From the NCBI RefSeq assembly GCF_004792415.1, contig NZ_CP038853.1, positions 992,001 through 1,056,000 of the forward strand: a DNA stretch of 64,000 bases. The letters run 5' to 3'. The notes below the pieces were generated by a model, which had not been told where the DNA came from, made no database searches, and was given only the letters and a program-made list of their open reading frames with translations. Positions 42,774 through 46,849 of the stretch are shown one piece after another; positions within the stretch are counted from its first letter, which is position 1, and the number at the start of each line of letters is the position of its first letter. This DNA comes from Pantoea vagans. GTDB lineage: Bacteria; Pseudomonadota; Gammaproteobacteria; Enterobacterales; Enterobacteriaceae. The position numbers and the translations under genes are program-made.

Positions 42774-43526
42774 ATGTTGCAAAATATTCGTATCGTGCTG
42801 GTCGAGACTTCTCACACCGGTAACATGGGCTCCGTTGCGCGCGCCATGAAAACCATGGGCTTAACCAACCTCTATCTGGTTAATCCGCTGGTCAAACCCG
42901 ACTCACAGGCGATCTCGCTGGCCGCCGGTGCCAGTGACGTTATCGGCGACGCAAAAATCGTCGATTCACTGGATGAGGCAATCGCCGGATGCAGTCTGGT
43001 GGTCGGCACCAGCGCACGTTCACGTTCGCTGCCCTGGCCGATGCTGGATGCACGTGAATGCGGCGTAAAAAGTGTGGAAGAGGGCCAGCAGGCACCGGTC
43101 GCACTGGTGTTTGGTCGTGAGCGCGTTGGCCTGACCAACGAAGAGTTGCAGAAGTGTCATTATCACGTCGCGATTCAGGCTAACCCGGAGTACAGCTCGC
43201 TGAACCTGGCGATGGCAGTACAGATTATCGCCTATGAAGTGCGCATGGCATGGTTACAGTCGCAGGAGCAGGCCAGCCCGCCGCCGAAGTTTGAAGAATC
43301 GCCTTATCCGCTGGTGGATGACCTTGAGCGCTTTTATCAGCATATGGAACAGATGATGCTGAACAGCGGCTTTATCCGTGAAGCCAATCCAGGCCAGGTG
43401 ATGAGCAAACTGCGTCGTCTTTATACCCGTGCCCGTCCGGAACGTGATGAACTGAACATCCTGCGCGGTATGCTTTCGTCGTTTGAAAAGCGAAAAAACG
43501 AGAAAAAAGAAGCAGATAATAGTTGA
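42774..43526 (+). CDS. trmJ: tRNA (cytidine/uridine-2'-O-)-methyltransferase TrmJ
   Basis: SPOUT-family enzyme that methylates the ribose of nucleotide 32 in several tRNAs. The N-terminal SPOUT domain (about residues 1-160) shows [33 protein letters not shown] and the knot loop [16 protein letters not shown]-terminal helical extension ends in a Lys/Glu-rich tail. It has 250 residues. Its last three codons (AAT AGT TGA) form the beginning of the first IscR-type box upstream of iscR. Confidence 0.96.
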
Positions 43527-43593
43527 GTAAATTACCTGGTTAAATACCTGACTAATTTACCAGGTTAAATAGTTGACCAATTTACTCGGGAAT
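43518..43593 (+). promoter_or_regulatory. Three tandem 25-bp IscR type-1 boxes (iscR promoter)
   Basis: Three imperfect direct copies start at 43518, 43543 and 43568, each beginning AATA(G/C)(T/C)TGA and containing AATTTAC or AAATTAC then CTGG, CAGG or CTCGG. They fit the IscR type-1 consensus. The third copy holds a TTGACC -35, with a weak -10 (CAGACT) 17 bases on, so bound [2Fe-2S]-IscR would block the promoter. Confidence 0.82.
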
Positions 43594-43656
43594 GTCAGAC
43601 TTCATGGCATCTGTTGCTAATCCTCCGATAACCGGACGCTATTGAGGTCGTACGCT

Positions 43657-44154
43657 ATGAGACTGACATCCAAAGGACGTTATGCCGTTACTGCAATGCT
43701 GGACGTTGCCCTTCACTCCCATGAAGGTCCGGTCCCGCTGGCTGATATTTCAGAACGTCAGGGCATTTCGCTCTCCTATCTGGAGCAGTTATTCTCCCGA
43801 CTGCGTAAAAACGACCTGGTTTCCAGCGTTCGTGGCCCGGGTGGCGGTTATCTGCTGGGTAAAGCGTCAGACACCATCTCTGTCGGCGAAGTGATTACTG
43901 CGGTTGATGAGTCGGTTGATGCCACCAAATGCCAGGGCAAAGAAGGCTGCCAGGGCGGCGAGCGTTGTCTGACTCACGTGCTGTGGCGCGATCTGAGCGT
44001 GCGTATCAGTGACTTCCTGAACAATATTACGCTGGCTGAGCTGGTGAATAATCAGGAGATTCTGGATGTGGCCGATCGTCAGAATGCGATCGATAATCGT
44101 CGCTTCCAGAGCCCGCGTTCGCAGGAAATTAACGTCAACCAGCGCGCATCGTAA
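43657..44154 (+). CDS. iscR: Iron-sulfur cluster regulator IscR
   Basis: Rrf2-family [2Fe-2S] regulator that represses isc with its cluster and, without it, activates suf. Start [11 protein letters not shown] gives 165 residues; five upstream codons are excluded. The winged helix ([20 protein letters not shown]) is nearly identical to E. coli. Ligands Cys92, Cys98, Cys104 and His107 ([17 protein letters not shown]) are intact, so the protein should be functional. It is normally the first gene of iscRSUA-hscBA-fdx-iscX. Confidence 0.97.
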
Positions 44155-44242
44155 TCCCCGCTGTTGCGGCCCTTACTGCTAACGCGGTCAGGGCCGAATC
44201 TGCTATAAAGACGTATGATTTTCTATACGGAGCTGTAGCGCA

Positions 44243-45403
44243 ATGAAATTACCGATTTACCTGGATTATGCCGCCACCACGCCGGCCGATCCGCGTGTGG
44301 CCAGCAAAATGATGCAGTTTCTGACGCTGGATGGCACGTTCGGTAATCCGGCTTCGCGATCGCACCGTTTTGGCTGGCAGTCTGAAGAAGCGGTCGATGT
44401 TGCCCGCAATCAGATTGCCGAACTGGTCAACGCCGATCCGCGCGAAATCGTCTTTACCTCTGGCGCCACCGAATCCGATAACCTCGCGATTAAAGGCGCA
44501 GCCCACGCCCATCAGGCGCGCGGCAAACATATCATCACCAGCCAGACGGAACACAAAGCGGTGCTCGACAGCTGTCAGCAGCTGGAGCGCGAAGGTTTTG
44601 ATGTCACGTATCTGACGCCGGCAGCTAACGGCATTGTCTCGCCTGAACAGCTGCGTGCGGCGCTGCGCGATGACACCATTCTGGTTACTCTCATGCACGT
44701 CAATAATGAAACCGGCGTGGTTCAGGATATCGCCGCCTTTGGCGAACTCTGCCGCGAGCGTGAGATTCTGTTTCATGTGGATGCGACCCAGAGCGTCGGT
44801 AAGTTGCCCATCGACCTCAGCCAGTTACCGGTCGATTTGATGTCATTTTCGGCCCACAAACTCTATGGTCCGAAAGGCATCGGTGCACTCTATGTGCGGC
44901 GTAAACCGCGCGTGCAGATTGCTGCGCAAATCCACGGCGGCGGGCATGAACGCGGGATGCGCTCCGGCACCCTGCCGGTGCATCAGATTGTCGGCATGGG
45001 CGAGGCCTATCGTATCGCGACAGAAGAGCGCGAAACTGAGATGGCGCGTCTGCAGGCGCTGCGCGATCGTCTGTGGCAGGGTATCAGCGTATTGCCGGAT
45101 GTGACACTCAATGGCGATCCGCATCAGCGTGCGCCGAACATTCTTAACATCAGTTTCGCTGACGTTGAGGGTGAATCCCTGATCATGGCGCTGAAAGATC
45201 TGGCGCTCTCTTCCGGCTCGGCCTGTACCTCTGCCAGCCTGGAGCCTTCCTATGTTTTACGCGCGCTGGGCGTAAGTGAGGAGCTGGCGCACAGTTCGCT
45301 GCGCTTCTCGCTGGGACGCTTCACGACCGAAGAAGAGATCGACTACGCCATTGCCCTGGTGCAGAAGTCGGTGACCCGGCTGCGGGCCTTAATGAAATCC
45401 TGA
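44243..45403 (+). CDS. iscS: Cysteine desulfurase IscS, C-terminally shortened
   Basis: PLP enzyme that takes sulfur from cysteine and passes it on as a persulfide. It has Lys206 ([10 protein letters not shown]), His104 and the catalytic Cys328 ([14 protein letters not shown]), all at E. coli positions, so catalysis should be intact. The protein has 386 residues instead of 404. It follows E. coli through about residue 382, then ends LMKS; the usual tail (SPLWEMYKQGVDL and the terminal WAHH) is missing in every frame. That tail is known to contribute to IscU binding. The gene after it is pepB, not iscU. TusA/ThiI sulfur transfer likely remains. Confidence 0.93.
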
Positions 45404-45562
45404 TACCCGGTCATAATCCGGAAACTGCGCCAATATGGGCGCTTCGCTGGCAACGTCCGGCGGAATCTGTTATCAGGTCTCTGTGAAATACATTTAACAT
45501 CTTATTAAAGCCGTCATAACAATCAGGCTGGATGAAACAGATAACGATTACGGAGCTTTTCG

Positions 45563-46849
45563 ATGACCACACAACCCATGAACATTACGCTTAGCAGCCA
45601 GCCCGCCGATGCGCGCTGGGGCGAAAAAGCGATTCTGAGCAGCAACGACAGCGGCATGACGCTGCATCTCACCGGCGCGGATGCGCTGAATACTATTCAG
45701 CGTGCGGCGCACAAAATCGACAGCCAGGGCATCCGCCACGTGGCGCTGACCGGCGAAGGCTGGCACCTGGAGCAGTGCTGGGCATTCTGGCAGGGCTTCC
45801 GTGGCCCGAAAGGCCAGCGCCAGGTTGAGTGGCCAGCGCTGGGCGAACATGAGCAGGCGGAGTTTGATCGCCGTCTGAAAATCATCGACTGGGTCCGCAA
45901 CGTGATTAACCTGCCTGCAGAAGACCTGGGGCCGGAACAGCTGGCGCATACTGCCGTCGATCTGATCAGTGAAGTGGGCGGCAGCGCTGTGAGCTATCGC
46001 ATTACCAAAGGCGACGATCTGCGCGTTCAGGGCTATATGGGCCTGCACACGGTGGGACGGGGTTCAAATCGCCCGCCGGTTTACCTGGCGCTCGACTACA
46101 ACCCAACCGGCGATGAGAATGCACCGGTCTACGCCTGTCTGGTCGGTAAAGGCATCACCTTTGATACCGGCGGCTACAGCCTGAAGCAGAGCAGCTTCAT
46201 GGACTCAATGAAGTCTGACATGGGCGGCGCGGCGACCGTTACTGGCGCACTGGCAATGGCGATTTCGCGTGGCCTGAACAAGCGCGTCAAACTCTACCTC
46301 TGCTGTGCCGATAACATGGTCAGCAGTAACGCCTTCAAGCTTGGCGACATCATTCGCTATCGCAACGGCAAATCGGTGGAAGTCATGAACACCGATGCGG
46401 AAGGTCGCCTTGTCCTGGCCGACGGTTTAATCGACGCCAGCGAGCAGAACCCGACGCTGATCATCGATGCTGCCACGCTGACCGGCGCGGCTAAAACGGC
46501 GCTGGGCAACGACTATCATGCGCTGTTTACCTTTGATGATGTGATGGCGCAGTCGCTGATGGGCAGCGCGGTAAGTGAGAACGAGCCTTTCTGGCGCCTG
46601 CCGCTGGCTGAATTCCATCGCAGCCATCTGCCGTCTAACTTCGCCGATCTCAATAACATCGCCAGCCCGTCTCATGCGGCAGGCGCCAGCAGTGCAGCAG
46701 CGTTCCTGTCCCACTTCGTGAGCAACTATCAGCAGGGCTGGCTGCACATCGACTGTTCCGCCACCTATCGCAAAGGGGCGGTTGATCAATGGGCGGCGGG
46801 TGCAACAGGTCTTGGCGTGCGAACCATCGCTAATCTGCTACTGAAATAA
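45563..46849 (+). CDS. pepB: Peptidase B (M17 leucyl aminopeptidase family)
   Basis: Broad-specificity metallo-aminopeptidase, 428 residues. The M17 signature [13 protein letters not shown] and metal-binding [15 protein letters not shown] and [10 protein letters not shown] segments are intact. GGAG lies 7 bases before the ATG. In E. coli pepB follows iscX; here it follows iscS after 159 bases, so the whole iscU-to-iscX block is missing from between. Confidence 0.96.

What the first reader, a model, noticed from the sequence alone, without database searches (positions are those of the whole stretch)
43518..45562. isc operon reduced to iscR-iscS: iscU, iscA, hscB, hscA, fdx and iscX are absent
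iscR, iscS and pepB are adjacent, with only 159 bases between iscS and pepB. In E. coli six more genes lie between them. Catalytic residues of IscS and cluster ligands of IscR are intact, so the deletion looks selected rather than decay. The scaffold, carrier, chaperones and ferredoxin would have to come from elsewhere (Suf, ErpA and NfuA are plausible). Fe-S enzymes RlmN and IspG and IscR itself still need clusters.
Basis: partly seen in the sequence, partly recalled or inferred. Interest (0 to 1): 0.75.

Follow-up and report, generated by a model that had tools for sequence, protein, structure and literature searches.

The report
IscS stripped of its iron-sulfur partners
This bacterium has lost its main iron-sulfur cluster assembly line but kept that line's sulfur-releasing enzyme and its regulator, and the kept enzyme has lost surface parts that used to dock the missing partners while keeping those used to modify tRNA.

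Summary
Observation correct: trmJ-iscR-iscS-pepB are contiguous, 159 bp between iscS and pepB. The genome has no IscU, HscB, IscX or CyaY but a complete sufABCDSE. The loss is old: 0 of 61 genomes of the genus has an isc-type IscU; six have a NifU-length hit. A tree of flanking genes needs six changes of isc state in the order, five forced by well-supported branches. IscS itself changed: its C-terminal IscU-binding tail, kept in 111 of 111 IscU-bearing loci, is truncated or scrambled in 48 of 48 isc-less ones. Other surfaces for lost partners decayed; TusA contacts and the catalytic site did not. In small genomes without TusA, the TusA site decays in turn. Best reading: Suf took over cluster assembly, frataxin went with ISC, IscS survives as sulfur donor for tRNA thiolation and related pathways, IscR as Fe-S sensor. 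All inferred from sequence; nothing tested at the bench.

The parts
42774..43526 (+). trmJ, left neighbour as in E. coli
   Evidence: 80% identity to E. coli TrmJ
43544..43593 (+). two adjacent IscR type-1-like sites in the iscR promoter
   Evidence: scores 20 and 22 against the recalled consensus; best score in 500 random 140-bp stretches of the window was 18. A 36-nt stretch here is identical to the E. coli iscR promoter (by eye)
43657..44154 (+). iscR, C-x5-C-x5-C-x2-H ligands intact
   Evidence: 77% identity to E. coli IscR
44243..45403 (+). iscS, 386 aa: catalytic and TusA-contact residues intact; R112Q, K101Q, K92A, F89A, R225Q, E227A relative to E. coli
   Evidence: aligns to E. coli IscS 1-383 of 404
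45392..45403 (+). 3' end of iscS: three codons that differ from E. coli 384-386, then stop; E. coli 387-404 have no counterpart (the start of the IscU-docking helix, 379-383, is kept)
45404..45562 (+). iscS-pepB junction where iscU-iscA-hscB-hscA-fdx-iscX are absent
   Evidence: no isc relic here at E <= 0.01
45563..46849 (+). pepB, right neighbour as in E. coli
   Evidence: 77% identity
46863..47660 (+). sseB ORF (start codon not settled)

Best explanation
The lineage of this Pantoea lost the ISC assembly module (IscU, IscA, HscB, HscA, Fdx, IscX and the unlinked frataxin CyaY) and makes its Fe-S clusters with SufABCDSE, delivering them through SufA, ErpA and NfuA. IscS was kept because it is also the persulfide donor to TusA (mnm5s2U34 in tRNA, molybdenum cofactor) and to ThiI (s4U8, thiamine). 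Freed from IscU, Fdx, CyaY, IscX, HscB and ACP, its docking sites for those partners decayed in isc-less lineages: the IscU helix at the C-terminus, the Arg112/Arg116 and Arg223/Arg225 basic patch, Glu309/Glu347. The TusA site (Trp45, Glu49, Asp52, Arg55) and the active site stayed fixed. IscR was kept with its type-1 sites, so it can still sense cluster supply, now from Suf. Shown: gene content, repeated loss, residue patterns. Inferred: the sulfur-transfer role, loss of IscU binding, and control of suf by IscR. The roles of TusA and ThiI are established knowledge from E. coli.
For: Module absence in chosen sets: HscB 0 of 38 isc-less vs 26 of 26 isc+ genomes; IscX 0/38 vs 26/26; CyaY 0/38 vs 25/26; SufB/D 38/38 vs 12/26. 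Carrier-domain genes: three in 20 of 20 isc-less, four in 12 of 12 isc+ suf+ genomes. IscS is 404 aa in 110 and 402 aa in 1 of 111 IscU+ loci and all 111 align to residue 404; a strict tail pattern matches 102 of 111 and 0 of 48 isc-less. Shi et al. 2010 (PMC2854127; passages and section 9, part 1, read) place IscU on Arg379-Lys391 among other contacts, cite that IscS without 376-404 does not bind IscU, and show that W45, E49 and D52 mutants lose TusA. Of 261 positions fixed in 57 enteric IscU+ IscS: published ISC-partner residues up to 375 are broken (<80%) at 9 of 16 in isc-less against 0 of 16 in equally diverged non-enteric IscU+ IscS (p 8e-4); other positions 30 of 220 against 29 of 220; TusA/ThiI residues 0 of 9 against 1 of 9. 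R112 is Arg in 111 of 111 IscU+ and 2 of 37 isc-less. Tail and R112 change in 5 of 5 independent pairs, W45 and E49 in 0 of 5. Reciprocal: small IscU-less genomes have TusA in 26 of 39 with an IscS match, 1 of 11 without (7/11 vs 1/11 at 0.6 Mb or less, p 0.024); W45+E49+D52 all kept in 22 of 26 TusA+ and 3 of 13 TusA- genomes (18/20 vs 3/7 at matched divergence).
Against: MnmA is present in 61 of 61 genomes tried (60 small ones and the window's), including the 11 without an IscS match, so tRNA 2-thiolation alone does not force IscS retention. 'Without IscS' means no match at E <= 1e-100; a very diverged IscS could be missed. Thirteen small genomes keep IscS without a TusA hit. ThiI was not searched. 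Among IscU contacts outside the tail only E309 and E347 are clearly relaxed; G310, E311, L313 and S326 are kept, and in the window itself E309, E347, R116 and R223 are intact. IscU core contacts alone gave no significant excess (2 of 7 broken). Five independent pairs cannot reach p 0.05 by sign test. Part of the ISC-partner residue list was assembled after the relaxed positions had been seen.
Confidence: 0.8

Rival explanations
1. IscS still takes part in Fe-S assembly, handing sulfur to the Suf scaffold beside SufS.
For: Retained iscR-iscS linkage and conserved type-1 sites keep iscS under Fe-S control. S326, needed for IscU-dependent s2C in E. coli (Table 3 of PMC2854127), is kept in 37 of 37.
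Against: SufS and SufE are present in this genome, so a second desulfurase is not needed. Several surfaces for Fe-S partners decayed while the TusA surface did not. No call here tests an IscS-Suf contact.
Confidence: 0.11
2. The IscS changes only reflect generally faster or relaxed evolution in these lineages, not loss of partners.
For: Isc-less IscS are more diverse among themselves (mean identity 0.758) than enteric IscU+ (0.896). Many fixed positions with no known partner role are also broken.
Against: Non-enteric IscU+ IscS are as diverse (0.771), yet break 0 of 16 partner residues and 3 of 32 with the tail, against 9 of 16 and 23 of 32; at other positions the two groups break equally (29 vs 30 of 220). 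Eight of nine catalytic or PLP positions are unchanged in 48 of 48, A75 in 46 of 48.
Confidence: 0.06
3. Artefact: assembly gap or misassembly at the junction.
Against: No N in the region; same junction in independent genomes; genus-wide absence of an isc-type IscU.
Confidence: 0.01
4. The isc-less state is ancestral and E. coli-type operons were gained repeatedly.
For: Parsimony counts alone cannot tell gain from loss.
Against: Aeromonas and other gammaproteobacterial loci have the same operon order beside iscR-iscS. A decayed iscX lies between iscS and pepB in L083 (E 3e-9), with weak traces (E 6e-4 to 8e-3) in L100, L102, L104, L105, L108 and L086.
Confidence: 0.02

Closest known systems
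E. coli IscS (PDB 1P3W; complexes 3LVJ-3LVM)
   Same: 80% identity over residues 1-383; catalytic and TusA-contact residues identical; best PDB matches
   Different: No counterpart of E. coli 387-404; R112, K101 and R225 replaced
E. coli iscRSUA-hscBA-fdx-iscX operon
   Same: Position between trmJ and pepB, iscR promoter sites, iscR and iscS
   Different: Six downstream genes missing, and cyaY missing elsewhere
Moranella endobia, endosymbiont of mealybugs (PMC3620526, passages read)
   Same: Complete suf operon and iscS, without iscU; published in 2013
   Different: A reduced symbiont whose partner Tremblaya encodes iscU; there read as possible complementation. The window is from a full-size genome, and IscS tail loss is not mentioned in the passages seen
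SUF-only bacteria with separate desulfurases for tRNA (recalled, Gram-positive)
   Same: Suf as the only complete cluster machinery, a further desulfurase kept for other sulfur uses
   Different: Here the further desulfurase descends from an ISC desulfurase, so the loss of its partner sites can be read in sequence
IscS delta 376-404 deletion mutant of E. coli (cited in PMC2854127)
   Same: Lacks the IscU-binding end; reported not to bind IscU
   Different: The window's truncation is natural, shared by relatives, ends later (386), and comes with further surface changes

Membership tests
IscS group of cysteine desulfurases | PLP lysine and catalytic residues (H104, D180, Q183, K206, C328) | tested here: met
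   identical in 48 of 48 isc-less IscS including the window
IscS group of cysteine desulfurases | C-terminal IscU-docking helix (E. coli 379-391) and tail | tested here: not met
   window keeps 379-383 only and ends at the residue aligned with 386
ISC machinery | IscU scaffold | tested here: not met
   PF01592 absent from the genome
ISC machinery | HscB/HscA chaperones | tested here: not met
   HscB absent genome-wide; HscA absent from the window, not searched genome-wide
SUF machinery | sufABCDSE | tested here: met
   L123: sufA, sufB, sufC, sufD, sufS, sufE in one run, 66-88% identity to E. coli
IscR regulator | three Cys and one His ligand pattern | tested here: met
   present in the window and in 32 of 32 isc-less loci with a full IscR (window included); 5 of 37 loci had no full IscR in the stretch held
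IscR regulator | type-1 sites at its own promoter | tested here: met
   scores 20-22 against a null maximum of 18
IscR regulator | type-2 site at the suf promoter | tested here: inconclusive
   best scores 16-18 in four isc-less suf promoters, within the null range 13-20 (E. coli scores 24); a conserved block lies where E. coli has the site
TusA sulfur relay | TusA present and IscS contact residues conserved | tested here: met
   one TusA hit in the genome; W45, E49, D52, R55, R220, R237 intact
ThiI sulfur relay | ThiI present | not tested

The most novel reading that the evidence does not exclude
Repeated loss of ISC in enterobacteria is a natural deletion scan of the IscS surface: positions that decay only after the loss mark ISC-only contacts. 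It bears independently on the 2026 claim that the IscS Arg112/Arg116-ACP contact serves ISC and not tRNA thiolation: ACP must still be in these cells (recalled: essential; not searched), yet nothing there holds Arg112, which is gone in 35 of 37. It also predicts an ISC-only docking surface around Phe89-Tyr90-Lys95-Lys101 and Glu285, of which only Lys101/Lys105 (HscB) and Phe89 (weakly, ThiI) have been tied to a partner in the papers seen.
Probability: 0.6. Interest if true: 0.72.

Novelty: new variant of a known kind. Interest (0 to 1): 0.62.

Why it matters
The usual picture of enterobacteria is ISC for housekeeping and SUF for stress. Here 115 of 392 sampled genomes of the GTDB family had no PF01592 hit. 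Of 80 of those looked at further, 25 have 3 Mb or more, and all 38 isc-less genomes tested have SufB/D. The repeated losses separate, within one enzyme, the surface that serves Fe-S assembly from the surface that serves tRNA thiolation, without mutagenesis. That gives testable predictions for contacts still debated (ACP, HscB, frataxin), and shows frataxin absent from all 38 isc-less genomes tested.

Tried and rejected
MnmA as the reason for keeping IscS: MnmA was in 61 of 61 genomes whether or not IscS was there, so that test does not discriminate. TusA was used next and does, with genome size as a confounder (checked).

IscR type-2 site at suf: consensus scan not above chance.

A relic of iscX in the window's own junction: none at E <= 0.01; a three-codon resemblance to the end of iscX was seen by eye and not counted.

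G141 and G219 were counted as isc-less although PF01592 rings there: their isc locus is trmJ-iscR-iscS-pepB; that the hit is NifU is inferred.

Papers: passages or named sections of PMC2854127, PMC11302665, PMC3750173, PMC5037179, PMC13343975, PMC4440780, PMC11559095, PMC2682760, PMC9035817, PMC3620526 and PMC7042692 were seen, none in full. Searches (open-licence PMC only, listings capped) listed no paper that from its title and start of abstract reports ISC loss in Pantoea or erosion of the IscS tail with loss of IscU; most listed papers were not opened, and subscription journals and bioRxiv were not searched. PMC3620526 does report suf plus iscS without iscU in an endosymbiont.

Confidence lowered from 0.82 to 0.80 for the E-value point.
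Full report
OBSERVATION. The window holds trmJ (42774-43526), iscR (43657-44154), iscS (44243-45403), pepB (45563-46849) and sseB in that order and strand, with 159 bp between iscS and pepB. E. coli K-12 has iscU, iscA, hscB, hscA, fdx and iscX in that gap; none is in the window. The genome is 4.79 Mb in 3 contigs and rated 100% complete. PF01592 finds no IscU in it, while the same search rings in E. coli. HscB, IscX and the unlinked frataxin CyaY are also absent. A complete sufA-B-C-D-S-E run lies within C1:2264500-2276500 (L123). The genome has three genes with the A-type carrier domain: one at sufA, and two in open frames of 116 and 194 aa, read as ErpA and NfuA by length. The window is closest to Pantoea anthophila (97% over 1192 aligned residues of four flanking proteins).

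HOW WIDE. In a sample of 392 genomes of the GTDB family, 277 have a PF01592 hit and 115 do not. In the window's genus 0 of 61 genomes has an isc-type IscU; six have a hit in an open frame of 280-319 aa, which by length is NifU. Named relatives without iscU at the locus are Pantoea anthophila, P. stewartii, Pantoea sp. IMH, Erwinia persicina, an uncultured Erwinia, Lonsdalea quercina and an Enterobacterales MAG; Mixta sp. and Erwinia sp. OLFS4 keep iscU-iscA-hscB-hscA-fdx. A tree of SuhB, TrmJ, PepB and SseB (85 rows; 80 rows with a mixture model) needs six changes of isc state, five of them forced by starred branches. On the best tree they are the Pantoea/Erwinia clade, G113, G064, Lonsdalea, a clade with G141 and G104, and a clade with G024 and G115. 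Of 108 rows considered, 23 without both trmJ and pepB could not be placed (17 isc-less, 6 IscU+). Counts of changes cannot tell gain from loss. The operon order is the same in Aeromonas, and a decayed iscX with stops and a deletion lies between iscS and pepB in L083 (E 3e-9), with weak iscX traces at the same place in L100, L102, L104, L105, L108 and L086 (E 6e-4 to 8e-3; no other isc gene gave a trace), so these are best read as losses.

THE MODULE GOES TOGETHER. In 38 isc-less and 26 isc-bearing genomes chosen from the sample: HscB 0 of 38 and 26 of 26; IscX 0 of 38 and 26 of 26; CyaY 0 of 38 and 25 of 26 (Fisher p 6e-17, relatedness ignored); SufB/D 38 of 38 and 12 of 26. CyaY is not in the isc operon, so its absence is a further event. 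Roche et al. 2015 (PMC4440780, section 9 read) reported that all prokaryotes with CyaY also have IscU; the present counts agree. Carrier-domain genes number three in 20 of 20 isc-less and four in 12 of 12 isc+ suf+ genomes, as expected if IscA alone is gone.

IscS CHANGED. With E. coli IscS (404 aa) as query, the match reaches residue 404 in 77 of 80 IscU-bearing genomes. The three exceptions are G141 and G219, whose isc locus lacks iscU, and G096, which has a run of N. It reaches 404 in 1 of the 69 of 80 IscU-less genomes that have an IscS match at E <= 1e-100. At sequence level IscS is 404 aa in 110 and 402 aa in 1 of 111 IscU+ loci, all aligning to residue 404, and 380-406 aa in 48 isc-less loci; a strict tail pattern matches 102 of 111 and 0 of 48 (duplicates are listed under Tried and rejected). 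The one isc-less full-length match, G064, ends in a scrambled tail, and a few others (L019, L111, Lonsdalea) keep parts of it. The window keeps the start of the docking helix (379-383) and ends at 386. Shi et al. 2010 (PMC2854127; passages and section 9, part 1, read) place IscU on residues 309-316, 347, the end of helix 11 and 379-391, and cite loss of IscU binding when 376-404 is removed.

FOOTPRINT. Of 170 positions at least 99% identical in 111 IscU+ IscS, 119 stay at least 95% identical in 37 isc-less IscS (genomes of 2 Mb or more, or named relatives), and 22 fall below 80%: nine in the tail, and R112 (2 of 37), E285, D346, E309, F89, R223, Y123, E347, R225, L333, S324, H350 and S352. R112 and R116 are implicated in binding Fdx (PMC3750173, passages) and ACP (PMC13343975, passages); R223 and R225 in CyaY, IscX and Fdx; the L333A mutant lowers IscU-dependent s2C only (Table 3 of PMC2854127). 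W45, E49, D52 and R55, which contact TusA, are unchanged in 38 of 38 rows; R220 and R237 in 37 of 38; eight of nine catalytic or PLP positions in 48 of 48, A75 in 46 of 48. In the window: R112Q, K101Q, K92A, F89A, R225Q and E227A, with W45, E49, D52, R55, R220, R237, R116, R223, E309 and E347 intact.

CONTROLS. Isc-less IscS are more diverse (mean identity 0.758) than enteric IscU+ (0.896), so non-enteric IscU+ IscS of equal diversity (0.771) were used. Of 261 positions fixed in enteric IscU+: published ISC-partner residues up to 375 break at 9 of 16 in isc-less and 0 of 16 in non-enteric IscU+ (p 8e-4); with the tail 23 of 32 and 3 of 32 (p 5e-7); all other positions 30 of 220 and 29 of 220 (p 1.0); TusA/ThiI residues 0 of 9 and 1 of 9. 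Of 181 positions fixed in non-enteric IscU+, 3 break in enteric IscU+ and 24 in isc-less; within residues 1-375 the partner residues break at 6 of 13 and the others at 9 of 157 (p 2e-4). The partner list comes from published tables, but R112, K101, K105, E227, S326 and L333 were added after the relaxed list had been seen; misses such as K105 and S326 were kept in. A first version with IscU core contacts alone was not significant (2 of 7 broken). On the tree, tail loss and R112 loss go with IscU loss in 5 of 5 independent pairs, K101 in about 4, E309 in about 3, and W45 and E49 in none; five pairs cannot reach p 0.05.

WHY IscS STAYS. In small IscU-less genomes (1.8 Mb or less) TusA is present in 26 of 39 with an IscS match and 1 of 11 without (p 0.001; the one, G132, is rated 8% contaminated), and in 20 of 20 larger isc-less genomes. 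The 11 are among the smallest genomes; at 0.6 Mb or less the counts are 7 of 11 and 1 of 11 (p 0.024). 'Without' means no match at E <= 1e-100. When TusA is lost and IscS stays, its TusA site decays: W45, E49 and D52 all kept in 22 of 26 TusA+ and 3 of 13 TusA- (p 3e-4); at matched divergence 18 of 20 and 3 of 7 (p 0.02). All six TusA residues together do not separate significantly (9 of 26 against 1 of 13, p 0.12). MnmA does not discriminate (61 of 61), so the 13 TusA-less genomes must use IscS otherwise; ThiI was not searched.

IscR. The window IscR keeps its ligands, as do all 32 isc-less loci with a full IscR (window included); five of 37 (L089, L101, L103, L106, L110) show iscS without a full iscR in the stretch held, so the two genes can part. 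Two type-1-like sites precede iscR. A type-2 site at suf could not be shown.

MECHANISM AND LIMITS. The simplest account is takeover by Suf, loss of the whole ISC module including frataxin, and specialisation of IscS to sulfur transfer. No binding or activity was measured. R112 also serves Fdx and IscX, so its loss is not a test of ACP alone; but ACP should still be present (recalled), and it has not held R112 in place, which says that an ACP contact, if any, is not kept outside ISC. The 2026 paper reports that ACP depletion affects ISC-dependent maturation and leaves tRNA thiolation unchanged, which agrees.

NOVELTY. Loss of ISC with retention of SUF is known in general, and suf plus iscS without iscU has been described in the endosymbiont Moranella endobia (PMC3620526, passages). 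The open-licence literature searches made here listed no report of this loss in Pantoea or of IscS tail erosion. I file it as a new variant of a known kind.

Noticed in passing
L065 and L068: Two non-enteric MAG isc operons have iscS followed directly by iscA with no iscU seen in the locus, yet IscS keeps its full tail; IscU probably lies elsewhere in those genomes.
   Followed up: no
G022 (L131): The only one of 26 isc-bearing genomes tested without a CyaY hit.
   Followed up: no
14 of 26 isc-bearing genomes tested lack SufB/D, so single-machinery enterobacteria occur in both directions.
   Followed up: partly
G401, G402, G419, G420, G428, G436: Six genomes of the window's genus have a NifU-length PF01592 hit; whether nif genes surround it was not checked.
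   Followed up: no
G328 against G047 and G181: One genus code holds an isc-bearing 3.6 Mb genome and isc-less genomes of 0.8-0.9 Mb, probably a further separate loss; the small ones could not be put on the tree.
   Followed up: partly
L123, roughly 65-90 bp upstream of sufA; L125-L127: A conserved block (CCCTGCAAAACAAGAGGTTGAA) stands where E. coli has the IscR type-2 site but does not match its consensus above chance.
   Followed up: partly
L083, between iscS and pepB: A decayed iscX with stop codons and an internal deletion is still visible.
   Followed up: yes
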